The translations under genes were made by a program, and so were the position numbers. From Aureimonas populi (GTDB lineage: Bacteria; Pseudomonadota; Alphaproteobacteria; Rhizobiales; Rhizobiaceae): a stretch of 64,000 bases of DNA. Positions within the stretch are counted from its first letter, which is position 1. Each line of letters opens with the position of its first letter. The DNA lies in the NCBI RefSeq assembly GCF_017815515.1, contig NZ_CP072611.1:1736001-1800000 (forward strand). Reading direction: 5' to 3'. This document shows positions 1-11,659 of the stretch, piece after piece. The notes under the pieces were generated by a model. It was given only the letters and a program-made list of their open reading frames with translations. It was not told the DNA's origin and ran no database searches.

Positions 1-1443
1 AAGGGGGCGGGCAAGGGCGAGGCGGAGGCGCTCGCCGAGGCCGAGCGGCGGACGGCGATCGCATCGGGCCGCTGGACGTGGGAGACGTTGGCCGAGCGGT
101 ATGTGGAATACCTGTCGAAGCCCCGGACGACCTCCCGGGGCGTCATCAAGCTGCCGTCGCTGTCCACGGCGGCGGAGGCCCGACGATACCTGACGATGGA
201 GGCGACCGCGCCGCTTCGCGGCCGACTGGTCTCCGATCTTCGAACGGGCGACCTGGAGGAGGTTCGCGACGCCGCCGAGAAGGCGGGTGCGAAGGCGGCG
301 AGCCGTCAGTTCGTCGCCTACTCCAAGGCGGCCCTCTCATTCGCCCGGCGCAAGCATTCGCGGGTGTCAGGCCTCGAAGGTGTATCCCGCTGGTGGCTTG
401 AGGTCGAAAAGCTGGATTCCACGATCCCGGCTCCGCGTGCCCGTCACCCCTCCGTCGCCGAACTGGCGCATGTTCTATGGGTGGCCGAGACGACGCGGAC
501 AATGCCGGGGCGAGAAACGAAGCGACGCACGTCGGACGGCATCCTTTGTTCCCTCTGGTGGCTCGCCCTGACAGCGCAGCGCGCCGGGGCCGGGCTCTCG
601 CTCCGAAAGGCGCACGTCCTCCCATGGCCAGGCGGCCCGGAGGGCTGGCGGGTGGCCTACTTTCCCGGGGAAGTCATGAAGGCGGGACGACCCCACGCGA
701 TCCCCCTTCCACCCCGTGCCGTTCTCTTGGTTGAACGCGCGATAGCCGCAGCCGCCCGGAAGGATTCGGCGTTCGTCTTCCCGACCGTTCGCACGACCGG
801 GGACGTTGCTGACACGCCCATGACAAAATCTTCGCCGGGCCTGCTCCTGTCGCGGCTGCGCGGGCGCCCCGCCGACACAGCCCTCTGTGAGGAGGGAGAG
901 ACCGACGACAATGCGCGAGGCCCCGACCTCCTCGACGGCATCGAGCACTTCTCGCCGCATGATCTCCGCCGGACGTTCGCGACCACCTGCGGCGACCTCG
1001 CCGTTCGTGGCGATGCCGTGTCGGCGGTCCTCGACCATACGCAGGAGGTCGATACCGGCGGCCGGTTCGCACCTGCGGCCACGACGGCCGACATTACCCG
1101 GCTCGCCTACGATTACAGTCAGCGCCTTGAACTCAAGCGAGTGGCTGTCGAGGCGTGGACCGGCGCGCTCTTCGGGGCGTGCGACGCCGAGTGGGCCTCG
1201 CACCGGCCGAAGGGGCCCCGGATTGCATTGGGACCGGGCACCCCGATACCCGAATGGTTCCCGTGGTATCGGCGGATGGCAATCGAAGCCGAGCGGCGGG
1301 CGGCGGCGGAGGTTGAACGGGTCCGCCGCGAGCGCGAGGCGCGTGGACCGCTGCGTCTCGCCGCGCTGGGGAACGTCCGGCCTGACGACGAGCCCGACCC
1401 GGAATGGGTCGCGAGAGGAGAACGCAATGATTCGAGCAGGTAG
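1..1443 (+). CDS. Tyrosine recombinase / integrase (5' end outside window)
   Basis: Site-specific recombinase expected to integrate and excise the element that fills the first 11.6 kb. The frame is open from base 1, so the true start lies to the left; a TTG at 88 is only an internal candidate. The catalytic set of the family is visible: the first Arg in TAQRAGAGLSL, the beta-strand Lys in MKAGRPHAIPL, the box HDLRRT, the second His in LDHTQ, and a C-terminal Tyr in RLAYDY. No frameshift is seen, so the catalytic half looks intact. The N-terminal part should hold the SAM-like core-binding domain. The gene points into the element, with its 5' side towards the unseen left boundary. The family call is firm. 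Pairing with the tRNA-Arg site about 10 kb away is inference. Confidence 0.9.
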   Translation, partial: KGAGKGEAEALAEAERRTAIASGRWTWETLAERYVEYLSKPRTTSRGVIKLPSLSTAAEARRYLTMEATAPLRGRLVSDLRTGDLEEVRDAAEKAGAKAASRQFVAYSKAALSFARRKHSRVSGLEGVSRWWLEVEKLDSTIPAPRARHPSVAELAHVLWVAETTRTMPGRETKRRTSDGILCSLWWLALTAQRAGAGLSLRKAHVLPWPGGPEGWRVAYFPGEVMKAGRPHAIPLPPRAVLLVERAIAAAARKDSAFVFPTVRTTGDVADTPMTKSSPGLLLSRLRGRPADTALCEEGETDDNARGPDLLDGIEHFSPHDLRRTFATTCGDLAVRGDAVSAVLDHTQEVDTGGRFAPAATTADITRLAYDYSQRLELKRVAVEAWTGALFGACDAEWASHRPKGPRIALGPGTPIPEWFPWYRRMAIEAERRAAAEVERVRREREARGPLRLAALGNVRPDDEPDPEWVARGERNDSSR

Positions 1444-1794
1444 TTGGGTAGGAATTGGACGGCGAAGGGACGGGAATCGCCCTTTATGGGAGGGCGCAGG
1501 ACGGCACGAAGATCGAGGGCGGGTATCTTTCCATCCCGATGAATTGTTGTGACGTGAGGGCATCGCACGACCGTTCTAGTCGGGCTTCAACGGTGGTTTG
1601 ACTGCTCGTTGGAATGGAAACAATTCGAAACCGCTTTGAAGCGGACATACTGCGAGATGCTCAGCGCGGCGCTACCGGGAATTAAACACGCATCTTGGTG
1701 GCTTTTTCTATGCCATGTCTTCGACAGCGGGTCCGAACGTGTGATAACCATCGGACTTGAACCTATCAAATGACCGTGGCGTAAGGAGCAACGC
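1444..1794. other. Intergenic gap between integrase and DUF3825 gene
   Basis: About 350 bp without a convincing gene. Base composition drops from the G+C-rich integrase to much more A+T. A short hairpin sits at 1631-1644 (CCGCTT, 2-base loop, AAGCGG). The end of the gap holds the ribosome binding site AAGGAGC for the next gene. A promoter for that gene is expected here, but I see no clear -35/-10 pair. Confidence 0.5.
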
Positions 1795-2694
1795 ATGGCA
1801 ACTAGAATCTTCGACTTCGCACGGGTCGCGGATTGGGACGATCGTCTCGCTACCTTGGCTAGTATGGCAGAACCCGAAAGATGGAAAAACCTTCACCTTC
1901 TGGCCAAGAACCAGCATCCCGTTCTTGATCGATATCTTACTCACACGTTCATCAGAGCGTATGACCAGCAGAAGATTGTTATCGCGGATCAGGTCGCCTG
2001 TTTCAACACCGGCCTCCTTACACCTGGTCAGGAAGAAATCTTTGGCGTTTTCACCGTTTCCGATACCTATGATCGCGCTCAACCGATCTCGCCTGCGAAC
2101 AAGAAGTGGTGGCTGAAGAGTTGGGCGAGATCCGGGGATAGGGTTCTGACGGACTTTATGGAATTGCCAAACCTGACCGAGTACTGGAACGATCCCAAAG
2201 ACTTGATATTTGATCCGAAGTTGCAGGTCCAACTCAATCTTGATCATATCATCCGCGACAACCTGAACCGGTTTCCTGAGGAACTGGGGGGAAAGGTAGG
2301 AAAGGATGGAAAGCCGACCGACCTCGCTGAAGATGCTGCGGGCGACGATGATGATGACAACAACGTTGAAGATAATGGTCAGCAACGCCAAATTCCGGTG
2401 GCGGCTAGGAATGCGCTAGAAGGTGCCGTCAAGCAGAGCATTCGGCTCGCTCAGAGAAGCTATCGTTTGGCAGTTCCTCAGTTCTACAGAGGCAAGATCC
2501 AGCTCCTGCTGCCTCTCTACCTCCGGGACTCATCACAGCCTGATCTGGCCCTCACCCTCGAACGTCACGGAGGTTGGTATAGGGCCGCGACTATTCTCTA
2601 CACGGACTGGGCCTACAGCCATGCTCGGCTGCTGGCACGGCCAAATAGCGAGTGGTTGGGTGGTTTCCGAACGGGTGTTCGGGACGTCGATTGA
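1795..2694 (+). CDS. DUF3825 domain protein (cargo gene)
   Basis: A 299-residue cytoplasmic protein resembling the DUF3825 family of unknown function. Supporting segments are FDFARVADWDDRLATLAS at the N-terminus, the LDRYLTHTFIRAYDQQKI stretch, FNTGLLTPGQEEIFGVF, and the late tail with RAATILYTDWAYSHARLLA. An acidic linker (AGDDDDDNNVEDN, near residue 185) separates two halves. No signal peptide or membrane segment is seen. The start ATG follows AAGGAGC by a good distance. G+C and codon choice are clearly lower than in all neighbours, so the gene was probably acquired separately as cargo. Its position behind the integrase is typical of accessory or defence genes, but nothing in the sequence shows a defence function. 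Confidence 0.7.
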   Translation: MATRIFDFARVADWDDRLATLASMAEPERWKNLHLLAKNQHPVLDRYLTHTFIRAYDQQKIVIADQVACFNTGLLTPGQEEIFGVFTVSDTYDRAQPISPANKKWWLKSWARSGDRVLTDFMELPNLTEYWNDPKDLIFDPKLQVQLNLDHIIRDNLNRFPEELGGKVGKDGKPTDLAEDAAGDDDDDNNVEDNGQQRQIPVAARNALEGAVKQSIRLAQRSYRLAVPQFYRGKIQLLLPLYLRDSSQPDLALTLERHGGWYRAATILYTDWAYSHARLLARPNSEWLGGFRTGVRDVD

Positions 2695-2716
2695 TGAAGG
2701 GCAACGCACGGCCGTT

Positions 2717-3190
2717 TCAGACGGTCGTCAACGACCGTTTCCCACCCCCTCGCGCGGCGAACTTCGCGGCGAGGGTTCCGCCGTCGATCATGGACGCGCC
2801 GTCAATGGCGGAGAGGAGGCGGCGGCCCCGGGAGCGCCAGTCCGCGAGGCAGCGCGCCGGCTGGCGGTCGGCCTCTAGCCAGAGAGTTCGCCAAGCCCCG
2901 GGGTCGTCCTCATCGAGGGTCGCGAAGAGCGCCTGCAGGTCGTCGTCGCAGGCGATAGTGAGGTCCCGCCCGAGGGTGCCGCACCACGGTTCCGACTCTT
3001 GGCGAACACGCCGCCACGGGCGGCCCGATGACGTGGCCGCCGCCTCGCCGTCAGCGACCACCCACGCGCCGAGAGCGGTGTCGTAGGTGGACCACTCCGG
3101 AGCGCCGCGGCCTGCCGCGCGTCGGCGGACATAGCGGCGGAGCGAGGTCGCCTCACGGCAGGATTCGAGGGCCGCGGTCGCGGTCGTCAC
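2717..3190 (-). CDS. Hypothetical protein of the mobilisation operon
   Basis: A 157-residue protein I do not recognise. It is Arg-rich at the N-terminus (SLRRYVRRRAAGRG), has a central acidic stretch (CDDDLQALFATLDEDDPGAW) and no membrane segment. The ATG overlaps the relaxase stop by 4 bp, which implies translational coupling in a three-gene minus-strand operon (5007-5297, relaxase, this gene). Codon use matches the relaxase. Its position behind the relaxase suggests an auxiliary mobilisation or accessory role; this is inference only. Confidence 0.6.
   Translation of the reverse strand: MTTATAALESCREATSLRRYVRRRAAGRGAPEWSTYDTALGAWVVADGEAAATSSGRPWRRVRQESEPWCGTLGRDLTIACDDDLQALFATLDEDDPGAWRTLWLEADRQPARCLADWRSRGRRLLSAIDGASMIDGGTLAAKFAARGGGKRSLTTV
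2721..2738 (+). terminator. Short hairpin after DUF3825 gene
   Basis: A 7-bp perfect stem (ACGGTCG / CGACCGT) with loop TCAA, followed by TTT, lies 26 bp after the DUF3825 stop codon. It overlaps the last codons of the convergent gene. It could end transcription of the cargo gene; the T-run is short. Confidence 0.4.
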
Positions 3191-5010
3191 GAGGGCCGCC
3201 TCTCGTGGACGTTGGTCAAGGCCTGCGGCTCGGGGTGCGTGACGACGGTCGCGGCCCGCGGGTCCCGCTCCAGTTCGGCCGCCCCGAACTTACGGAAGGC
3301 GGACAGGCTGGCCGTGATCTCCTCACGGCCAGCTCGGGCAAGGTCGCGCCGTTGCTCGTCATCGAGGTGACCAGACACGAACGCGCGTAGGTTGGGATCG
3401 AGGTTCCGCAGCGCGACGACATCGCCCGAGGCCGCCGACAGGAGGAGATCCGCTTCCCGGGTTTCGCTGCGCACCGCGCGCAGGCGAGTGTCGGCCTCGG
3501 CGGCGGTGCCCGTCTCAACCGCCCAGGCGGCGGCGAGCGCTGGCGACGGCTCGTAGCCGTCGAGGCTCACGCCTTGTCGCTGACACTCCAGCCAGAGCCG
3601 GGCCTGCGACTCTGGCGGCCACGGGCCGTCGAGAGCGAGGTGCCCCGACCAGTCCTCGGCCGCCTTCGCCGCGAGGGCGCGCAGGGCCTCGTCGGATACG
3701 GGGCCGTGGAGGTCCACGTGGTCGCCGGAGTCGAGGAGCCGGCTACGCCCGCCGAGGCCGACGCGGACACCAGCGGGGGACTCCGTGACATCGGCGAAGC
3801 CGCGCCGCCGCCAACGGTCGGCGAGGCTGACGGCCTCGGCCTCCGGGATGGCCTTGCGGCGGGATCGGCCGGGCCTCTTAGTCGCCGCGGTGCGCGGCAG
3901 CCGATCTACGCCGTAGCCCGCCGACTCGGCGATGGCCTCGGCGAGCGCGGCGGCCTGCGGCGAGCGAGGCCCCCAGAGAGAGACGGTGCCGGACTCGTCA
4001 TCCACCTCCACCCAAGCGCCGTCGCGGAGCATCGTGCGGGTGCGGCGCGAATCCCTCGCGTCCACGAGGTAGAGGGCATCCCGGAACGGGGTGAAGTCGC
4101 CGTCAGGGAAGCGGTCGGCGAGGATCGACAGCTTGTAATCCTGCTGGTGAGGCTCTCGCTTCCTGGCGGGGGCGCGGGCGAATCCTCGGGCGGTCAGGGC
4201 CATTTCAATCTCCGTTTCGGTGAGGGCGTTGTCGATTTTCCGTGACTCACGAATCTTTGCCACATGGGTGGTGCGACGGTCGTTCTGCCGTCGCCTGACG
4301 ACGGAGGCCTTTCGGCGCTCGCCGATCAGGGGCTCCGGGGTCCGTGGGTCCCCGCGAGCCTGATACGAACGGTGGTCGGCGCGCCGTTTCGAGCCGACCG
4401 CTCGAAGGTGAGCGTTGAGCACGCCTGCGACACGCTCGCGCTCGCGGATGAGGGCATCGCCCTTCTTGCCTCCCGCCCGCCCGCCGCTCTCGAAGATCGC
4501 GAGGAGGTCCGCGTTCCGGGTTCCGGCAAATCCCGTATCGGTCGATGGGTCCAGGCGGCGCATGGTCATCAGGAGATGGCCGTGCGGCTGGCGTTCGCGG
4601 TCGGCCGCTGGCGGACAGTGGATCGCGACATCCACTACGGCACCGGCGGCGACATAGGGAGCCGCGACATCGCGCAGGAAGTCGGCCCATCGGTCGTCGG
4701 GAAGGTCGCGGGGGATCGAGACCTCCACCTCGCGCGCCGTGACCGAATCCTTACGCCGCTCGGCGAGCTCGGCGCGGCTCCATAGGGCCTCGCGATCATG
4801 CACCCAAGCGGGTGTGTCCGGCGAGGCCATAACGAACGAATCCGTTACGTGCTTCTTGCGTGAGTAGTCCCATGTCGAACCGGTGCGGGCATCGGTCAGG
4901 CGCGTTCCGGAACGATACGCCGCAGCGGCGACGGCCGACCGCCCCTTGCTCCGCTGAACGACTTTCGCGGAGACGTGGCACAGGGCCTCGTGGGCCGGGA
5001 GCGATGTCAC
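3187..5010 (-). CDS. MobA/MobL-family (MobQ) relaxase
   Basis: DNA-nicking relaxase that should cut the element at oriT and carry the strand during conjugative mobilisation; 607 residues. The N-terminus matches MobA/MobL: HVSAKVVQRSKGRSAVAAAAYRSG with the catalytic Tyr in AAYRSG, then LWSRAELAERRKDSVTAREVE, and the metal-binding HUH-type motif in QPHGHLLMTMRRL. A long C-terminal region follows. It has segments such as FPDGDFTPFRDALYLVDARD and a stretch ending in QGVSLDGYEPS that resembles the LPD7-type domain of large mobilisation proteins. No helicase or primase motifs are obvious. It overlaps its upstream neighbour by 4 bp (ATGA). The predicted oriT lies just upstream of the operon, the usual arrangement. 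Confidence 0.9.
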   Translation of the reverse strand: MTSLPAHEALCHVSAKVVQRSKGRSAVAAAAYRSGTRLTDARTGSTWDYSRKKHVTDSFVMASPDTPAWVHDREALWSRAELAERRKDSVTAREVEVSIPRDLPDDRWADFLRDVAAPYVAAGAVVDVAIHCPPAADRERQPHGHLLMTMRRLDPSTDTGFAGTRNADLLAIFESGGRAGGKKGDALIRERERVAGVLNAHLRAVGSKRRADHRSYQARGDPRTPEPLIGERRKASVVRRRQNDRRTTHVAKIRESRKIDNALTETEIEMALTARGFARAPARKREPHQQDYKLSILADRFPDGDFTPFRDALYLVDARDSRRTRTMLRDGAWVEVDDESGTVSLWGPRSPQAAALAEAIAESAGYGVDRLPRTAATKRPGRSRRKAIPEAEAVSLADRWRRRGFADVTESPAGVRVGLGGRSRLLDSGDHVDLHGPVSDEALRALAAKAAEDWSGHLALDGPWPPESQARLWLECQRQGVSLDGYEPSPALAAAWAVETGTAAEADTRLRAVRSETREADLLLSAASGDVVALRNLDPNLRAFVSGHLDDEQRRDLARAGREEITASLSAFRKFGAAELERDPRAATVVTHPEPQALTNVHERRPS

Positions 5011-5297
5011 GCGGAGTCCTCGGGCGGAGCGTATGTCTGCATGTCGAAGTCCGGATCGTAGGAGTCCAGCGTGGCGAAGGGGTCGCCGATATCGAACACG
5101 TCGCGGCGGCGGTCGTCATCACGCCGGGCCCGGTGATCCGCGCGGAGCCAGCGGTCGCGGGCCTCGTCGTGGTGGTCGGCGAGCGCGTCGAGGTCGGCTC
5201 GGGCCGCGCCCGCCCGCCTCGCGGCGAGGAGGATGCGCTGCGCGTGGTCCCAGGCGGTGCGTTCGGCCTCGGCGATCTGGCGGTGTGCTGACGACAT
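5007..5297 (-). CDS. Small charged protein upstream of relaxase
   Basis: A 96-residue protein with an Ala/Arg/Asp-rich, probably helical first half (AHRQIAEAERTAWDHAQRIL, then ARADLDALADHHDEARDRWL) and an acidic tail (DSYDPDFDMQTYAPPEDSA). It is the first gene of the relaxase operon, and its stop overlaps the relaxase start. Small helical proteins in this position often help relaxosome assembly, but I see no family motif. Confidence 0.55.
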   Translation of the reverse strand: MSSAHRQIAEAERTAWDHAQRILLAARRAGAARADLDALADHHDEARDRWLRADHRARRDDDRRRDVFDIGDPFATLDSYDPDFDMQTYAPPEDSA

Positions 5298-5342
5298 TCG
5301 TCCTCCCTCGTCGGCGACGGGGGCCAGCGCCGCAGGCCGTGC

Positions 5343-5380
5343 GCGTCATCCCCGCAGGGGATGACGCTTAAGCGCGCCCT
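5343..5380 (+). other. oriT: Predicted origin of transfer (oriT), Q-type
   Basis: A perfect inverted repeat has arms GCGTCATCCCC (5343-5353) and GGGGATGACGC (5357-5367) with a 3-base loop. It is followed at once by TTAAGCGCGCCCTT (5368-5381). The core TAAGCGCGCCCT closely resembles the nic region of Q-type oriTs such as RSF1010 and pSC101 (TAA-x-TGCGCCCT type), which also have an inverted repeat directly 5' of nic. It lies in the 300-bp gap upstream of the relaxase operon. The repeat is seen directly; the oriT role follows from the family, and the exact nick position is not shown. Confidence 0.75.
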
Positions 5381-5527
5381 TCGGGTTGGATGGCTTCCCC
5401 CGACCGATTGTGAGGGCGCCGATTTGCTCGGCGCAAGGCGACGCCGGACCATGGGAGTCGGCGCCCCGCGACGGGGCGCCCGAGGCCGCATGAGACCTAC
5501 AAAAATAGGCGGCGGCCTCGCTCCGGA

Positions 5528-5544
5528 TCGGAAATCATTTCCGA
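5528..5544. promoter_or_regulatory. Palindrome in the divergent mobilisation promoter region
   Basis: TCGGAAATCATTTCCGA is a perfect 17-base palindrome (8-bp arms, one central base). It sits 60 bp before the GTG of the small mobilisation gene and next to an A-rich stretch (ACAAAAATAGG, near 5500). It looks like a dimeric repressor site controlling mobilisation genes. No candidate regulator is identified in the window. Confidence 0.4.
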
Positions 5545-5603
5545 CGTGGAGGTGGATTCCGCCGGCGGCGATGGGGCCTCCGGCTCGGACGGGAGGCGAC
5601 GGC

Positions 5604-5867
5604 GTGACACTCGATCTCAAGAAGCTCGCGCAGCGGCGGGCAGCGCTGGAAAGCAAGCTGGCGCAGACGACTACGGCGCTTCGGGAGGCCCGGCGAAGGG
5701 ACGACACCAGGCGGAAGGTTGTCGTCGGGGGCGCGCTCCTCGCCGCCGTCAGGGATGGCGTGCTCCCTATCCATATCCTGACCGCGCTCGTCGGCCGGAT
5801 GACAGATCGCGACGCCGCACTCTTCGCGAGCGACACCGCTCCCGTCATGGCCGAACCCGGGGAGTAG
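5604..5867 (+). CDS. Small mobilisation protein, TraD/MobC-like
   Basis: An 87-residue protein starting at GTG 5604 with a GGGAGG ribosome binding site 5-10 bases upstream. The N-terminus is a charged helix (LDLKKLAQRRAALESKLAQT and on). It is followed by the turn and helix RDDTRRKVVVGGALLAAVRDG, a pattern shared with small TraD/TraC/MobC-type proteins encoded beside MobQ relaxases. An upstream frame extension exists, but it crosses oriT and lacks coding character. The gene is read divergently from the relaxase, and only 5 bases separate its stop from the next start. It is probably an auxiliary relaxosome protein. Confidence 0.55.
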   Translation: MTLDLKKLAQRRAALESKLAQTTTALREARRRDDTRRKVVVGGALLAAVRDGVLPIHILTALVGRMTDRDAALFASDTAPVMAEPGE

Positions 5868-5872
5868 ATGCG

Positions 5873-7972
5873 ATGGCGCTCCCGTTCCCCGACCTCCTGT
5901 CGAACCCGCCGGATACGGACATCGCGTGGTCGGTCGTCACCGCCATCATTCCGATGTCGGGAGAGGCAACCGCCTTCTCGGTCGGCATCGGCGTCCTCGC
6001 CTCCGCACTGACGTTCCTCGCGGTCTGCTGGCTGGCATGGTTCTGGCTCTCGGGCCTGACGCAGGCCGCCTACTCCGGGAGACCCTTCGGCGACGGCATC
6101 CACGGCTTCTGGGGGCCGCTACGCGTGGTGCTGGCCTTCGGGATGCTGGTGCCGCTCTCGGGCGGCCTGCCTGCCGTTTCCTACGTCCTGCGAGACTTGG
6201 TGGCGCGTCCTGCCATCAACACGGCCAACGCGGTGGCGCAGTCCTCCACCGCCTACGTCGTGCGAGACGGGAACACGCTGTCACCCCTCTCTATCGGCGG
6301 GGCCTCGCTCGTGCGCGAGGTGTTCGAGTCCGAGGTCTGCGCGGCGGCGATCCTCGCGGGCCGTGCGAACCTCGCCGATACGTCGGCCGCGGCGGCGAGC
6401 CTGCCGAATCCTGCCGGGTCGCCCGTTGTGCGTCCGGCGAGGGAATCGTTCTGGCCATGGGGCGAGTCCACGCCCGCCGCGACGACTGGCTACTCGTGGT
6501 CATGGGGGCCAGCGTGCGGAAGCCTTTCGGTATCCGCCGCCAGCGAGTTCGGCGACGGGACATTCGGTGAGGCCCGGCGGCGGGCCATCGGAGAGATCGT
6601 GGCGGGCGTGAGGGCGCAGGAGTTCGTCCAGCGGCTCGCAGAGGCTGTGCGAGGGGTTGGTGTAGACCCGGCCCCGCCCTCCGAGGACATGATCGAGGCG
6701 GCCAAGGCCCACGGCCAGCTCCCCGCCGATCTCGCAACGACCATCGCGCGCGCGGGCGCCGATCTCGATCGCACGCTCTCCGTGGCGGCGACGGAGGTCG
6801 CCCGCAGGTCTGGAGCCGCGTCGACCATGCGCGGGGAGGTGCTGCGGGACGTGCAGGAGCGCGGGTTCATGGCCCTCGCCAGCTACTACCGGGTGCTGGC
6901 CCATGTCAGCCTGTCAACGGCCGAGGCAGCAGGCGAACGCCCTGTCCGCGTCAAGCCGGACCCCGCAGCGTTCGGGGTCTACGACGGCGAGGCCTCGCGG
7001 GCGCTCGCCTACGTCGGTACGCAGTTCCGGCGCGAGGCCGCCGCGAAGGTGCTGGCGGACGGCGAGATCGGAGAGGCGACCGCAGAGGCGTCGGGCGTAT
7101 TCGCCGACCTTGTGTCGACTGTCACGGACCCGATCCGGGATCACCTACTGTCATACGACGGGCCTCGTGCGGACCCGATCGCCGACATGATGGACATGGG
7201 GTCTCGCCTCATCGTCGGAGCAAAGGCGGGCTACGCCGTCGCCCTTGCCGCCTACGGCACGTCGGCGCTCTTCATGGGGGCCGGGCAAGGGGCGCTGGAT
7301 GCCATCATGGTGCCGGGCTGGCCGATCCTCGGCGTCTTCTTCCTCGTCGGGCTGGTGTTGACCTACGTCCTGCCGCTCGTTCCCTACGTCCTGATGTGGT
7401 TCGCGTTCGGGGCCTTCGTGCTGGAATTCGCGGTCGCGTCCATCGCCGTTCTCGTATGGGCGTTCGTCCACGTCCGGCCTGACGGGCAGACCTTCGTCAG
7501 CGAGGCCCAGCGACACGGCTACGGGCAACTTCTGATCGGCATCTTCTTCCGCCTTCCCGCAACCGTCCTGGCGTTCATCGCGGCCCACATGCTCGTCGTC
7601 GTCCTGCTGAACGCCTTCCTCGCCTCCTACAACCTCTCGGTTCAGGGAGCGAACATCGGGCGCGCAACCGGGCTGGCGGGGATCGTCGTGGCCTTCGCCG
7701 TCATGGTCTACATGCAGTGGCAGTTCGTCGTCTGGACCTTCCGGCTGATCCTGTCGGTGCCGGAGAAGCTGGGCGCATGGTTCGGCGTGTCGGTCGCCTC
7801 ATGGGGCGAGGGCGAGGCCGGGTCCACTGTCGTCGGTGGCGTGTGGTCCAGCCAGCGGAACATCCCGGGAGCTCCCAAGCCCGGCGGAAGCAAGGGCAGC
7901 GCCCCCGGCGAAAGCGTGAGGGCGAAAGGCGGTCGCCCCCTCGGCGCCAAACCGGGCCCGAAGGAGGGGTAA
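5873..7972 (+). CDS. DotA/TraY-like polytopic membrane protein
   Basis: A 699-residue integral membrane protein resembling DotA/TraY of type IVB secretion and IncI-type conjugation systems. Start ATG 5873 lies 5 bases after the previous stop. The N-terminal hydrophobic segment (ASALTFLAVCWLAWFWLSGL) is followed by a DotA-like block FWGPLRVVLAFGMLVPLSGG. A long, probably periplasmic, middle domain follows (about residues 110-400). A C-terminal cluster of membrane helices (LVLTYVLPLVPYVLMWFAFG; HGYGQLLIGIFFRLPATVLA; GLAGIVVAFAVMVYMQWQF) then leads to a Gly/Pro/Lys-rich tail. No other Dot/Icm or Tra genes are nearby. The likely role is a mating-channel or coupling component supplied in trans to a helper system. 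Confidence 0.7.
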   Translation: MALPFPDLLSNPPDTDIAWSVVTAIIPMSGEATAFSVGIGVLASALTFLAVCWLAWFWLSGLTQAAYSGRPFGDGIHGFWGPLRVVLAFGMLVPLSGGLPAVSYVLRDLVARPAINTANAVAQSSTAYVVRDGNTLSPLSIGGASLVREVFESEVCAAAILAGRANLADTSAAAASLPNPAGSPVVRPARESFWPWGESTPAATTGYSWSWGPACGSLSVSAASEFGDGTFGEARRRAIGEIVAGVRAQEFVQRLAEAVRGVGVDPAPPSEDMIEAAKAHGQLPADLATTIARAGADLDRTLSVAATEVARRSGAASTMRGEVLRDVQERGFMALASYYRVLAHVSLSTAEAAGERPVRVKPDPAAFGVYDGEASRALAYVGTQFRREAAAKVLADGEIGEATAEASGVFADLVSTVTDPIRDHLLSYDGPRADPIADMMDMGSRLIVGAKAGYAVALAAYGTSALFMGAGQGALDAIMVPGWPILGVFFLVGLVLTYVLPLVPYVLMWFAFGAFVLEFAVASIAVLVWAFVHVRPDGQTFVSEAQRHGYGQLLIGIFFRLPATVLAFIAAHMLVVVLLNAFLASYNLSVQGANIGRATGLAGIVVAFAVMVYMQWQFVVWTFRLILSVPEKLGAWFGVSVASWGEGEAGSTVVGGVWSSQRNIPGAPKPGGSKGSAPGESVRAKGGRPLGAKPGPKEG

Positions 7973-7976
7973 ACGA

Positions 7977-8006
7977 GAACGGACGGCCCGCCAGAGCCGC
8001 CCGTTC
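7977..8006. terminator. Bidirectional hairpin terminator
   Basis: Arms GAACGGACGGC (7977-7987) and GCCGCCCGTTC (7996-8006) pair over 11 bp with one G:T, with an 8-base loop. It lies between the convergent DotA/TraY-like gene and a small minus-strand gene. No strong T-run follows. Confidence 0.6.
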
Positions 8007-8020
8007 GTCATCGGGTGGGA

Positions 8021-8170
8021 TCACCGCCCGATTGTGTAGGCCAGCGCCAGCAGGGCGAAGAAGGCCAGCGCGCCAAGGACGGGCAAGGCCACGATCGCCA
8101 TGGCCGCGATGGCGCGGAGGGCCGGGTTCCGGATGCCTGCCACCTGCGAGTAGTCGTAGCGTCGTGCCAT
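8021..8170 (-). CDS. 49-residue single-pass membrane protein
   Basis: The frame reads MARRYDYSQVAGIRNPALRA and then one long hydrophobic stretch (AIAAMAIVALPVLGALAFFA) with a short tail ending in YTIGR. The ATG at 8170 has a strong AAGGAGA ribosome binding site, and the stop lies 15 bp from a bidirectional hairpin; these two signs make it a credible gene despite its size. Topology would be N-in with one transmembrane helix. Function unknown; it may assist the DotA-like protein, which it faces convergently. Confidence 0.6.
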   Translation of the reverse strand: MARRYDYSQVAGIRNPALRAIAAMAIVALPVLGALAFFALLALAYTIGR

Positions 8171-8332
8171 GTCCGGTCTCCTTCGTTGCTGGCCGCTCTT
8201 CAGCCGTTCCGACCTCGACCACGCCGGGCCTCGTCGGGGTATCTGCCTCGCCCGTAGGGCGACGCCCCGCGCTTGGGCATCAGCGCACCAGCGAGGCCCG
8301 GCGTAGAGGTTCGAAGGAACGGCGTTAGCGGC

Positions 8333-8524
8333 CTAGCGGGGACGATAGACGTAGAGCCAGATGATGCGGACCGCCAACGCGATCAGGATCATCGTCATGG
8401 CGAGGAAGGTGCCATCACCCTTCACCCAAGCCCTCATCGCCGTCCACGGGATCGAGAAGGCGAAGAAAACGCCGACGGCTACCGCGTCACGCCAGTTGTA
8501 TTCGATTCGATATGGTGGGGTCAT
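8333..8524 (-). CDS. 63-residue membrane protein
   Basis: Small hydrophobic protein with two likely membrane segments: AVAVGVFFAFSIPWTAM, and AMTMILIALAVRIIWLYVY. It ends in basic residues (RPR). Weak ribosome binding site (GAGGCT). Similar in style to the 49-residue gene just downstream on the same strand, so the pair may form a small membrane-protein operon in the element. Family unknown. Confidence 0.45.
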   Translation of the reverse strand: MTPPYRIEYNWRDAVAVGVFFAFSIPWTAMRAWVKGDGTFLAMTMILIALAVRIIWLYVYRPR

Positions 8525-8588
8525 CGGCGGAGCCTCGTGCTGGAGTGTCTCTCAAGCTTGGGGCCCCGGTGTGCCGACGTCCAGGCCG

Positions 8589-9002
8589 TCAGTCGGCGGC
8601 GAGGCGACGGTCGGTCAGGAGCATGCAGTAGGCGGCGTTATCAGCCCCGGCCAGCGCCTCAGCGCAGGTGTCATACCAACCCTCCACGAGGGGAGCGCGG
8701 AACCCGCGCTTGTCGAGGAGGCGCGCGCTCCAGGCCCCGCGCACGTCGCGCTCCGGCGAGACGAGGAGCGTCATGCGGGCCGCGTCGTCGTCTTCGTCAT
8801 CGCGAACGGTCGCGCCGATGACGTGACACCACCACTCGGTGCCACCGCAGGGTGCGCACTCGTGCGCCCACGGCGACAGCCGCACGTCGGCGCGCGGCTT
8901 CACCCCCATGACGGCCGCGACCGCCTCCTGCGGCTCGCGCACGTAACCTACGCTCGCCGTCAGCCAGAGCCCCAGCGCCTCGTCGGCCGATCCCATGTCC
9001 AT
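8589..9002 (-). CDS. Hypothetical protein of the mobile element
   Basis: A 137-residue soluble protein I do not recognise. The cluster HECAPCGGTEWWCHV (near residue 47) has a CxxC pair plus a third Cys and His, which could bind zinc. The rest is Ala/Glu-rich with no membrane segment. ATG 9002 or the second Met two codons later may be the start. It lies between the small membrane genes and rep on the same strand and shares their codon use. Confidence 0.5.
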   Translation of the reverse strand: MDMGSADEALGLWLTASVGYVREPQEAVAAVMGVKPRADVRLSPWAHECAPCGGTEWWCHVIGATVRDDEDDDAARMTLLVSPERDVRGAWSARLLDKRGFRAPLVEGWYDTCAEALAGADNAAYCMLLTDRRLAAD

Positions 9003-9109
9003 GTGTCGTCACCCGTTGTGGTCGGCTCCCCTAGCCGTCGCGCCTCTCGTCCCGGATAACGCGCCGGGCGTCAATGGGGAGGAATTTGACGCGCTCGCGG
9101 CCTCGCGGA

Positions 9110-10768
9110 TCAGGCCGCGAGATGCGCGGGGCGTCGGGCCTGCGCGGCCGACAGGATGTCGGCGGGGGTCGGGCGCGGCAGATCGGGGCAGGCCGCCGCC
9201 ACGTCGTCGCAGGCACGGGCGAGACGGTCGCGGGTGTCCGCGCCGCCACGCGTGAGGTCGCCGAGGCGGTCGAGGGCGCGCGAGATGGCAAGGTCCAGCC
9301 GGGCTCGGGCCTCGCGGGCGGCGGCGGCATCGCGGGCGCGCTCGGCTTTCACGCGACGGGCCTCGGCGAGGTCGGCGATGCGCTGGGCGCGCTCCTCTGC
9401 CTCGGCCGACGTGGTGGCGAGGAGCGAGGCGAAGACGGGCGCGTCGATGGCCTCGGCCTCCTCGATCCGGCCGAGGAAGGTCCCGGCGAGGCCCGTCCGC
9501 AGAATGACCTTCCAGGTCGGCGCGGGGACGGTGCCAACGAGCGCCACGTCGTCGGTAAGGTCGAACTTCCCGCCCGCCTCGTCATCCTCATCGGCCTCAA
9601 GCCCGAGGGCGGCGGCGAGGCCCGGGGTAACGACGCACGAGCGCGTGCCCGGCATCACGGCGGCGAACTCTCGCCAGAGGCCATAGCTGCCACGGTCGTC
9701 GGGGTTGGCGATCGCGGCCTCGGCGATGTCCCACGGGGTGCGTCCGGCCGTCCGGCTCTTGTGGCCGGACGCGCCCGCCGCCAGTTCCCATGAGGTGCCC
9801 TTGGCGATGTATTCGCCTGCGGCCTCGGGCGAGGCGGCGATCTCCACGCCTTGGCCTTTCCGGAGGGCCTTGCCGCCGCGCTTCTCTACGGCGCGCATGA
9901 ACCGCGCGATCAGGGCCTCGCCCGCCGCGCGCGCGGCCACGGTGTCGGCGAGGCACGGCATGCCGAAATGGACATGGAAATGCCAGCCGCTCTCGCCGTG
10001 CGTGACCTCGGGCGCAACCAGCACGCCCGCGATGCCGCCGCGCTTGCGCAGGCGGTCCCACGGCGCTCCTCGGCGGGCGGCGGCGAAGGATTCGGTGACG
10101 AGCTTCTTCAGGTCCGTGAGGCGGTCGGTCGGGCCGTGCGAGACGGTCACGAGGCCCATGACGAACGTCCCGCCCCGGTCGGTCGTCGCCTCTACGACGC
10201 GCTGGACTCGTGCCTGCCGGAGCGTGGCGACCGCGGGCGCGCAGGTCGGGCAGAGCCAGCCGGAGCCGCATCGGTAGACCCCCGAGACGAAGGCGCGGGT
10301 GGGGCGGTCGGCGCTCGCGGGGCGCCGGTGGACTCCAATCTCCTCGATGGCGTGACCGGGGCGACCGCACCCGCAGACGGAAGGGCCGCGCTCGTCGGCG
10401 GCAAGACCGACGCGGAGCATGCGGGAGATGCCCGCGAGGAGGTCCCACCGGCGGCGCGTCGTGGGACGTGGGGCGGAAGTCCGCTCGTCCCTCTGCGGCT
10501 CGGCGGCGGGGGTCGCCGTGGTCCTCTGCGCCTCCCCGGCTAGGGGGGTGAATGTAGCTCCTCCTGTGGCAAGGCGGGGCCTCGCGGCCCCGCTGACGGA
10601 AGCTCCCGATGCGGCGACGGCGGAGCCGGCGTGCGAGGTCGCCGAGGCGGGGAAGGACTCGAAGAGGGAAAGGGCGGGAGCCGAAGCCGCGCCGTCGACC
10701 GGCTCGCGCGAGCGGCGGGCGAGGCGCTGGGCGGCGCCCGACTCCGGGGCCGGGCCTCGGTCGATCAT
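9110..10768 (-). CDS. Rolling-circle-type replication initiator (HUH Rep)
   Basis: A 552-residue protein (ATG 10768) that should nick a double-strand origin and start rolling-circle replication. The N-terminal 110 residues are low complexity (Ala/Pro/Arg). The Rep domain follows, with a zinc-binding region (CGCGRPGHAIEE and CGSGWLCPTCAP), the HUH metal motif in WHFHVHFG and the catalytic Tyr in GEYIAKGTSWEL. The C-terminal third is Ala/Arg/Glu-rich and probably coiled coil. An in-frame extension to 10969 lacks a ribosome binding site and enters a hairpin, so I chose 10768; GTG/TTG starts inside are also possible. A Rep in an integrated element suggests replication after excision or a plasmid ancestor. 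Confidence 0.8.
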   Translation of the reverse strand: MIDRGPAPESGAAQRLARRSREPVDGAASAPALSLFESFPASATSHAGSAVAASGASVSGAARPRLATGGATFTPLAGEAQRTTATPAAEPQRDERTSAPRPTTRRRWDLLAGISRMLRVGLAADERGPSVCGCGRPGHAIEEIGVHRRPASADRPTRAFVSGVYRCGSGWLCPTCAPAVATLRQARVQRVVEATTDRGGTFVMGLVTVSHGPTDRLTDLKKLVTESFAAARRGAPWDRLRKRGGIAGVLVAPEVTHGESGWHFHVHFGMPCLADTVAARAAGEALIARFMRAVEKRGGKALRKGQGVEIAASPEAAGEYIAKGTSWELAAGASGHKSRTAGRTPWDIAEAAIANPDDRGSYGLWREFAAVMPGTRSCVVTPGLAAALGLEADEDDEAGGKFDLTDDVALVGTVPAPTWKVILRTGLAGTFLGRIEEAEAIDAPVFASLLATTSAEAEERAQRIADLAEARRVKAERARDAAAAREARARLDLAISRALDRLGDLTRGGADTRDRLARACDDVAAACPDLPRPTPADILSAAQARRPAHLAA

Positions 10769-10947
10769 CGCGGCGTGGAGGCGCGCGGCGATCCCGCCCT
10801 CGGTGGGGCGGTGGGGAGGCAAAATTTGTTGACGCGTTTGGGCTGGGGAGGCTGTCGGCTGGCTGGGAGTATGTCCCAGCCGGGGGGTCACTCGCTGTCG
10901 CCGTTGACGGCGTACGTGCCGATTGTCATCATTGCCCCGCCTACCAG

Positions 10948-10988
10948 AGACCCCCGGGAGCGCCTGCAAGCGCGGTGATCGGGGGTCT
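10948..10988. repeat. Long-looped hairpin upstream of rep
   Basis: Arms AGACCCCCG (10948-10956) and CGGGGGTCT (10980-10988) pair perfectly. The loop holds an inner GCGC...GCGC stem, so the whole can form a branched hairpin. It lies about 180 bp before the chosen rep start. Possible roles are the Rep double-strand origin, leader-mRNA control or a terminator (TTTC follows on the plus strand). Confidence 0.45.
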
Positions 10989-11428
10989 TTCTGTGTCTAG
11001 CGTTCGGTGGATCGGGGCGGGCGTCAAACCGGCGGCGGATTTTAACCGGATAGACGTTAATAAACCTGACCGCGCGCGGCGCGTGGCGGCGCAGCCGACG
11101 CGGGCCGGGCGGAGCGAGGGCGCCCCGTCGAGGCGGCCGGAGGCCGGAGCCCTCCGATGGCATCGGTGGTCGCAAGCTCGACGGCAGGCCATCCCGCGTT
11201 GTCCAGCCCCGGAACGGGGCCGTAGCAGGGCGGAGGCGCGCCGCGCCCCCAAAGCGCCGTAGGTGCGCCGGAGCCCTGTGGTCAAGGCGGGGTGGGCGGA
11301 TCGGTGAGGCGGTGTCTCCTTCCCCCACCCGGACCATAGGTCCGCTCCACCCCTCCCCCAGGGGAGGGGTTCACGCCCCTCGCGGGGCGACGTGGGTGCG
11401 GCCGGATCGCGACGGCTGCGTCGTCACT
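10989..11428. other. Non-coding end region of the element
   Basis: About 440 bp without a supported gene between the rep hairpin and the terminal palindrome. A short A+T-rich patch at roughly 11039-11068 (includes GACGTTAATAAACC) stands out in very G+C-rich DNA and could be an unwinding or single-strand initiation region. The rest is G+C-rich without ribosome binding sites or a family match. Confidence 0.4.
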
Positions 11429-11474
11429 CACCGCCCGCCAAGGACTCGTAGGCGCGAGTCCTTGGCGGGCGGTG
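11429..11474. repeat. Perfect 20-bp inverted repeat near element end
   Basis: Arm CACCGCCCGCCAAGGACTCG at 11429-11448 is repeated exactly as its reverse complement at 11455-11474, with the 6-base loop TAGGCG. There is no T-run, and no gene ends here on either strand, so it is not an ordinary terminator. It lies 110 bp inside the tRNA-Arg 3' end. It may be an origin structure or a recombination-related site. Confidence 0.7.
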
Positions 11475-11486
11475 CTGTCAACAATG

Positions 11487-11507
11487 TTGGTCTAAACTTG
11501 GTCTAAA
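11487..11507. repeat. Direct repeat TTGGTCTAAA x2 next to the tRNA junction
   Basis: TTGGTCTAAA occurs at 11487-11496 and again at 11498-11507, an 11-bp period (one helical turn). Such helically phased direct repeats near an att core are typical arm-type binding sites for integrase or excisionase; that role is inference. Confidence 0.55.
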
Positions 11508-11582
11508 GCGCCGTGGAGATCTAACGCGACCTCGCAGCCGCCTTCGCGACTTCGAAAATCTCCAGCGATTTCAGCGTGTTGA

Positions 11583-11610
11583 TGGCGCGCCCGAAAGGAT
11601 TCGAACCTCT
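11583..11610. other. Predicted attachment site at tRNA-Arg 3' end
   Basis: Integrases of this class usually recombine within the T-arm/acceptor 3' segment of a tRNA and recreate it. This tRNA is intact, its 3' end faces the element, and phased repeats lie just inside. The second copy of the core should be left of the window and is not visible, so the exact limits are unknown. Confidence 0.45.
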
Positions 11611-11659
11611 GACCCCCAGATTCGTAGTCTGGTGCTCTATCCAGCTGAGCTACGGGCGC
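11583..11659 (-). tRNA. tRNA-Arg (anticodon ACG)
   Basis: A 77-nt cloverleaf read on the minus strand. Acceptor GCGCCCG pairs with CGGGCGC, discriminator is G, and CCA is encoded (TGG at 11583-11585). The anticodon loop CTACGAA gives ACG, decoding CGN arginine codons after A-to-I editing. The 3' end faces the mobile element. Confidence 0.97.

What the first reader, a model, noticed from the sequence alone, without database searches (positions are those of the whole stretch)
1..11659. Integrative mobilizable element ending at tRNA-Arg(ACG) with an unusual gene set
Seen: tyrosine recombinase, MobA/MobL relaxase, oriT-like site, DotA/TraY-like protein, HUH Rep, several orphan genes and low-G+C cargo, all next to an intact tRNA whose 3' end faces the block. 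Known: IMEs integrate at tRNA 3' ends and carry relaxase plus oriT but borrow a mating channel. Inference: these genes form one element with this combination, which I do not recognise as a described family.
Basis: partly seen in the sequence, partly recalled or inferred. Interest (0 to 1): 0.72.

Follow-up and report, generated by a model that had tools for sequence, protein, structure and literature searches.

The report
Hitchhiking DNA carrying own channel part
A 12-kb mobile DNA element in an Aureimonas-type bacterium carries its own copy of one key part of another element's DNA-transfer channel, probably so that it can ride that channel into cells that would otherwise shut it out.

Summary
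The element spans 12,179 bp, starting 552 bp left of the window. Its ends are an exact 46-bp repeat of the tRNA-Arg(ACG) 3' part, with paired TTGGTCTAA arm-type repeats inside both ends. It encodes integrase, MOBQ relaxase, RSF1010-like oriT, HUH Rep, cargo and a full-length DotA/TraY protein (190.7 bits), the VirB6-equivalent of type IVB (IncI, Dot/Icm) systems; no other type IVB gene was found.

DotA/TraY beside a relaxase, without other detected type IVB genes, recurs in 17 MOBQ, 2 MOBV-like and 2 MOBP loci (some near-identical). In a 347-genome order survey 8 of 13 DotA/TraY genes over cut-off lie so. TraY is under purifying selection in 4 informative pairs. Five elements have tRNA repeats.

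Most likely an integrative mobilizable element that puts its own TraY into a helper's type IVB channel, favouring its own transfer and evading TraY-targeted entry exclusion, as SGI1 does with TraG. The exchange is inferred. New variant of a known kind; my searches found no description for type IVB.

The parts
1..1443 (+). C-terminal part of the tyrosine integrase; the full gene is L009:8666-10444 / L010:665-2443 (592 aa) and starts 336 bp left of the window
   Evidence: Phage_integrase E 7e-5, below the Pfam cut-off; PHROG integrase E 1.3e-20; HDLRRT motif; homologues next to the far att copy in L031, L032 and L030
1795..2694 (+). Low-G+C cargo gene, DUF3825, 299 aa
   Evidence: PF12873 E 7.5e-66; G+C 0.52; no PADLOC hit
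2717..3190 (-). orf157, conserved partner gene downstream of mobQ, function unknown
   Evidence: found in 11 of 11 other Aureimonas/Aurantimonas loci
3187..5010 (-). MOBQ relaxase, 607 aa
5007..5297 (-). orf96, small gene between mobQ and oriT
   Evidence: 5 of 11 other loci by BLAST
5342..5390 (+). oriT: inverted repeat followed by a TTAAGCGCGCCCTT nic-like core; the stem sequence varies between elements while a palindrome is kept
   Evidence: TAA.CGCGCC core in 8 of 8 aligned loci, the first C being T in one; stems printed for 5 loci; likeness to the RSF1010 nic site is recalled
5604..5867 (+). orf87 (within reading frame 5361-5867), small relaxosome-type protein just upstream of traY
   Evidence: frame conserved in 11 of 11 other loci; no Pfam hit; resemblance to TraD-like proteins is recalled
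5873..7972 (+). traY: DotA/TraY-family polytopic membrane protein, 699 aa, VirB6-equivalent of type IVB systems
   Evidence: TIGR04346 190.7 bits; profile match to DotA 9ngy E 1.2e-29; profile alignment to type IVB plasmid TraY, probability 99.85 over 618 columns
8021..8170 (-). orf49, one predicted transmembrane helix
   Evidence: 3 of 11 other loci; hydropathy
8333..8524 (-). orf63, small predicted membrane protein
   Evidence: no homologue in the compared loci
8589..9002 (-). orf137, orphan
   Evidence: no family hit
9110..10969 (-). Rolling-circle-type Rep (HUH motif HFHVH)
   Evidence: relatives with PF01446; homologues in L032, L050 and L097; motif
11487..11506 (+). Right arm-type repeat pair, TTGGTCTAA twice, 11 bp apart; the left pair lies outside the window at L010:638-657
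   Evidence: these four are the only exact copies in 14 kb; role as integrase arm sites is inferred
11582..11627 (.). att core copy inside the tRNA (46 bp); the partner copy lies outside the window at C1:1735449-1735494
11583..11659 (-). tRNA-Arg(ACG), intact, target gene

Best explanation
It is an integrative mobilizable element that modifies its helper's channel. Shown by sequence: the integrase, att repeats and arm-type repeats define a 12.2-kb element at tRNA-Arg; it carries its own MOBQ relaxase, oriT and Rep; and it carries one complete type IVB channel subunit, DotA/TraY, with no other channel gene found. Inferred: after excision (and probably Rep-driven copying) the relaxase nicks oriT and hands the strand to the channel of a co-resident type IVB (IncI-like) conjugative plasmid. 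The element's TraY takes the place of the helper's TraY in the pentameric VirB6-type stalk. TraY is the donor protein that IncI exclusion factors recognise, so the exchange would let the element enter cells that already carry the helper. Likelihood: mobile element 0.97; TraY acts in a helper channel about 0.7; evasion of exclusion as the selected benefit about 0.5.
For: Ends. TraY matches over its length and has N- and C-terminal membrane clusters like R64 TraY and Aureimonas type IVB TraY. No other type IVB gene in 13 of 13 MOBQ loci searched by phmmer with 25 R64, Aureimonas and DotB-type proteins, against many in 4 of 4 type IVB loci run alongside (some queries come from that same Aureimonas group); likewise none in 4 further MOBQ, 2 MOBV-like and 2 MOBP loci. 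Same pairing with other relaxases: MOBV-like (L030, L096) and MOBP with NikA/MobC (L036, L101). TraY dN/dS 0.11-0.33 in the four divergent pairs. Candidate helpers exist: four type IVB loci in the genus with a MOBQ-related TraA and an oriT of the same build, inverted repeat then TAANTGCGC. R64 has excA next to traY. Published: IncI ExcA recognises TraY (passages of PMC12365149 and PMC11493245); SGI1 TraG replaces IncC TraG and is needed to get past exclusion (abstract of PMC5389848); VirB6 = TraY(R64) = DotA, pentameric stalk (table passage of PMC12624023).
Against: The element's TraY is only about 22% identical to TraY of the candidate helpers in the genus and lies on the other side of a deep split; SGI1 TraG is about 40% identical to its counterpart (passage of PMC5704250). 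Its own genome holds no type IVB system: the element's TraY is the only TIGR04346 hit; the one VirB4-type hit is 24.5 bits, just over that family's cut-off. Co-occurrence in the genus is only suggestive (3 of 4 type IVB genomes carry such an element, 3 of 17 others; p 0.053, not corrected for relatedness). Two of the six dN/dS pairs are too similar to inform (one gives 1.02 on dN 0.007, the other has dS 0). The AlphaFold model is poor (pLDDT 64.2, pTM 0.43) and found no structural match. No transfer or excision data.
Confidence: 0.57

Rival explanations
1. Interference: the element's TraY enters the helper channel as a poison subunit, or sits in the recipient, and lowers transfer of type IVB plasmids, protecting the host or the element from competition. 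It is not needed for the element's own transfer.
For: TraY is strongly diverged from helper TraY; some related loci carry defence-type genes nearby, such as type I RM, a C5 methylase and PDC-S06.
Against: TraY sits beside the relaxase or divergently across oriT from it, in the mobilization module. A match over its whole length and purifying selection fit an active subunit. A poison would harm the element's own vehicle.
Confidence: 0.17
2. Remnant: these are decayed type IVB integrative conjugative elements that happen to keep traY.
For: Both kinds use MOBQ-type relaxases with oriTs of related build.
Against: The same single channel gene is kept in 17 of 17 MOBQ loci and with two other relaxase types; no stop codon interrupts the TraY frames used; dN/dS is 0.11-0.33 in divergent pairs; the tree separates MOBQ- and MOBV-linked TraY from plasmid TraY.
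Confidence: 0.08
3. Ordinary mobilizable island; TraY has another membrane role, for example coupling the relaxosome to a VirB/Trb (type IVA) channel.
For: The host genome has one VirB4-type hit and no type IVB system.
Against: The family match is full length and specific to DotA/TraY; type IVA channels already have a VirB6 (recalled).
Confidence: 0.15

Closest known systems
Salmonella genomic island 1 (SGI1) family
   Same: Integrated, helper-dependent island that encodes a VirB6-class subunit of the helper's channel; SGI1's TraG replaces the helper's and gets past entry exclusion (abstract of PMC5389848)
   Different: SGI1 subunits belong to an IncC channel and include TraH and TraN; no canonical relaxase according to the 2017 review passage, though a 2021 abstract start (PMC9299015, listing) names own mobilization proteins MpsA and MpsB; here a type IVB subunit alone, MOBQ relaxase, tRNA target, 12 kb
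IncP island of Burkholderia glumae and relatives (PMC5704250, section 3.3)
   Same: Own relaxase plus a VirB6-class subunit (TrbL); proposed to subvert helper channel and exclusion
   Different: MOBP relaxase, IncP-type TrbJ/TrbL and a putative exclusion gene; here DotA/TraY, and no exclusion-type gene was recognised beside traY
GIsul2
   Same: Encodes a VirB6-class TrbL (passage of PMC5704250)
   Different: No own relaxase; IncP-type subunits
IncI plasmid R64 / type IVB conjugative plasmids
   Same: TraY of the same family (about 22% identity)
   Different: Complete channel, MOBP relaxase in R64, excA next to traY

Membership tests
Integrative mobilizable element | Site-specific integrase with att repeats at a defined target | tested here: met
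   46-bp exact repeat, integrase, arm-type repeats
Integrative mobilizable element | Own relaxase and oriT | tested here: met
   oriT by conservation, not by function
Integrative mobilizable element | No complete mating channel or coupling protein | tested here: met
   no type IVB gene other than TraY in L010 by phmmer; no channel or coupling-protein family among the 10 ORFs scanned besides TraY
Integrative mobilizable element | Excises and is mobilized by a helper | not testable with these tools
   needs circle-junction PCR and matings
SGI1-type channel-remodelling island | Encodes a homologue of a helper channel subunit of the VirB6 class | tested here: met
   VirB6 equivalence from PMC12624023
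SGI1-type channel-remodelling island | SGI1 backbone (traN/H/G, trmE target) | tested here: not met
   gene content; tRNA-Arg target; trmE target from an abstract start
SGI1-type channel-remodelling island | Subunit replaces helper subunit and evades exclusion | not testable with these tools
   needs mating assays
DotA/TraY protein family | Match above the curated cut-off over most of the model, N- and C-terminal membrane clusters | tested here: met
   190.7 vs 100 bits, model positions 21-656 of 656
Type IVB conjugative element | Complete set of type IVB tra genes | tested here: not met
   only TraY found

The most novel reading that the evidence does not exclude
A broad, so far unnamed class of alphaproteobacterial mobile elements pairs the type IVB VirB6-equivalent TraY with three unrelated relaxase types (MOBQ, MOBV-like, MOBP) to remodel IncI-like channels and defeat TraY-targeted exclusion. 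VirB6 capture would then be a general, convergent rule for satellites of conjugative systems, and in the sampled order most DotA/TraY genes would belong to satellites rather than to secretion systems.
Probability: 0.45. Interest if true: 0.82.

Novelty: new variant of a known kind. Interest (0 to 1): 0.7.

Why it matters
The channel-remodelling islands I found in print work on IncC or IncP channels. This would extend the strategy to type IVB systems, the class that includes IncI plasmids and Dot/Icm, with three relaxase types. It makes a concrete question testable: is the VirB6-class stalk the shared target of both exclusion and satellite takeover? It also warns annotators: in the order-level sample, 8 of 13 DotA/TraY genes over the cut-off lie beside a relaxase with no other type IVB gene detected nearby.

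Tried and rejected
Clean orthologous empty site: not found. The left flank differs between species. The stretch next to the left att copy instead recurs directly behind intact tRNA genes elsewhere, which gives only a paralogous uninterrupted junction.

att repeats for the other elements: found for 5 in all (window, G006, AU12, G029, G422). None was found in the stretches fetched for the other MOBQ loci, G359 or the two MOBP loci, so those are called mobilization loci, not proven integrated elements. Only L030, L031, L032 and (weakly, in the neighbouring stretch L171) G355 gave an integrase match.

Structure: one AlphaFold job gave a poor model and the Foldseek search gave nothing below E 2.7; not used. 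Exclusion gene on the element: none recognised; orf49 and orf63 are small membrane proteins of unknown role. TraY divergence is greatest at residues about 251-275 and the C-terminus, suggestive only. Class-level survey (17 of 385 genomes): contexts were inspected for 5 genomes only (G000, G422, G433, G482, G667): 2 relaxase-linked, 1 type IVB, 2 neither, so no proportion is claimed. In the tree the two MOBP-linked TraYs were entered under the label T4B because their relaxase was only recognised later.

In print: searches showed no title or abstract start that describes TraY/DotA on mobilizable elements. Listings were capped in 34, 76 and 102 (76 listed 8 of 2,614), and the library is open-licence PMC only. 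Papers: PMC5389848 abstract; PMC5704250 passages and section 11; PMC12624023, PMC12365149 and PMC11493245 passages; the others seen in search listings only.

Full report
What is there. The window is C1:1736001-1800000 of a complete 3.82-Mb genome whose named relatives at this locus are Aureimonas and Aurantimonas. Searching the genome with the tRNA region returned a second, exact 46-bp copy of the tRNA-Arg(ACG) 3' part at C1:1735449-1735494. The element therefore runs from 552 bp left of the window to window position 11627, 12,179 bp with both copies. Just inside each end lies a pair of TTGGTCTAA repeats, and these four are the only exact copies in the 14 kb examined. By eye, the sequences printed show a TAGGTAC pair at both ends of the G006 element. 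The integrase gene starts 171 bp past the left att copy.

Gene content. From left to right: integrase; DUF3825 cargo of low G+C; orf157, mobQ and orf96 on the minus strand; oriT; orf87 and traY on the plus strand; small genes; Rep on the minus strand. The oriT is an inverted repeat followed by a TAA-N-(C/T)GCGCC core found in 8 of 8 aligned loci. The stem sequence changes between elements while a palindrome is kept (5 printed), as expected for a relaxase recognition site. Rep homologues are rarer: 2 of 21 genus genomes, plus Leaf443 and G271.

TraY. The protein exceeds the DotA/TraY cut-off by 90 bits. A profile of 16 relatives matches DotA in the PDB (9ngy, E 1.2e-29) and aligns over 618 columns with TraY of six type IVB plasmids (probability 99.85). 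Hydropathy shows N-terminal and C-terminal membrane clusters around a large central domain, as in R64 TraY. A 2025 review table equates VirB6, R64 TraY and DotA as the pentameric stalk (PMC12624023, passage seen).

A recurring family. In 61 related genomes there are 16 DotA/TraY matches in 11 genomes. All 16 contexts were read (plus the window): 10 lie beside a relaxase with no other type IVB gene detected, 5 lie in type IVB loci (G001, G007, G010, G016, G036) and 1 has neither (G030). In 347 genomes of the order (the window's own included), 13 matches in 11 genomes exceed the cut-off: 8 relaxase-bearing without other type IVB genes, 2 with type IVB genes (G254, G063), 3 with neither, on contigs of 37, 9 and 7 kb. 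Three matches below the cut-off were not examined. 'No type IVB gene' means none among ORFs of 70 aa or more in the 14-22 kb held, by phmmer at E 1e-3 with 25 proteins.

The relaxase partners are of three types: MOBQ; MOBV-like (Mob_Pre at 25.3 bits, just under the cut-off of 25.5, in L030; its 53%-identical relative in L096 has no Pfam hit of its own); and MOBP (PF03432 at 87-90 bits with NikA/MobC-type partners in L036 and L101). Of the 17 MOBQ loci several are near-copies (L027/L045/L047 over the module, L028/L049, L033/L034), so they are not 17 independent cases.

Defined ends with tRNA repeats: window (Arg, 46 bp), G006 (Arg, 51 bp), AU12 (Thr, 48 bp at 97.9%), G029 (His, 58 bp at 96.6%) and G422 of another order (Ser, 66 bp at 97.0%). 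In G422 the relaxase (74.9 bits to ours) and TraY lie between the repeats; an ORF at one end looks integrase-like by eye but was not matched by the integrase search.

Mobility and selection. A. pseudogalii (G010) and AU12 (G001) share an 18.9-kb segment with the TraY module at 99.3% identity, while blocks of two chromosomal loci compared are 79-87% identical, a short tRNA block at 97% apart. A. ureilytica and A. endophytica share 18.5 kb at 99.94%; their chromosomes were not compared. TraY dN/dS is 0.11-0.33 in four divergent pairs; two further pairs are too similar to inform.

Mechanism. An element with its own relaxase and oriT needs a foreign channel. This one carries the subunit that, in IncI systems, exclusion proteins recognise (passages). 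SGI1's TraG replaces the helper's TraG, and the authors suggest that this disables exclusion (abstract); the IncP island is proposed to act likewise with TrbL. The parsimonious reading is the same strategy on a type IVB channel. The steps from TraY exchange onward are inferred. Against it: low identity (about 22%) to TraY of type IVB plasmids in the genus, a deep tree split, no type IVB system in this host, and only suggestive co-occurrence (p 0.053). The MOBP-linked TraYs fall on the plasmid side of the split, which suggests at least two captures; long branches make this tentative.

Site history. In 19 of 20 other genus genomes the tRNA-Arg and histidine-kinase genes lie together. G006 and G004 carry different inserts there with 51- and 45-bp repeats, so the site is an insertion hot spot. 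The flank beyond the left att copy is seen joined without a break to an intact tRNA-Arg(CCG) in G019 (85% over 195 columns), a paralogous picture of the uninterrupted arrangement.

Noticed in passing
L040:16042-17724: An Aureimonas type IVB plasmid locus encodes a protein with Fic and BID-domain matches (VbhT-like, below the curated cut-offs) near its TraA relaxase.
   Followed up: no
L010:277-481 (left of the window); L184-L189: A 120-195 bp stretch recurs directly behind intact tRNA-Arg(CCG) and tRNA-Ser genes in congeners and elsewhere in this genome; perhaps an old integration scar.
   Followed up: partly
L103 (G004:C1:3934500-3951500): A different element, about 11.8 kb and without a TraY match, occupies the same tRNA-Arg site in a congener, bounded by a 45-bp repeat.
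   Followed up: partly
G698:C3, G517:C6, G617:C16, G599:C14: Clusters of several DotA/TraY genes side by side in small alphaproteobacterial genomes (1.5-2.4 Mb).
   Followed up: no
L139 (Thalassospira plasmid): ORFs of 123 and 323 aa lie directly upstream of TraY, the second overlapping its start; no Pfam hit, possibly an undescribed mobilization pair.
   Followed up: partly
CP070277.1 vs NZ_CP066787.1: A plasmid labelled Dysgonomonadaceae has the same length and TraY identity as one labelled Martelella; one record may be mislabelled.
   Followed up: no
window 1795-2694: DUF3825 cargo gene of unknown function in a 52% G+C stretch; no defence-family hit.
   Followed up: partly
L030, L096, L098, L032, L033: Related TraY loci carry defence-type genes nearby: type I RM subunits, a C5 methylase, PDC-S06, a helicase and a GajA-like protein.
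   Followed up: no
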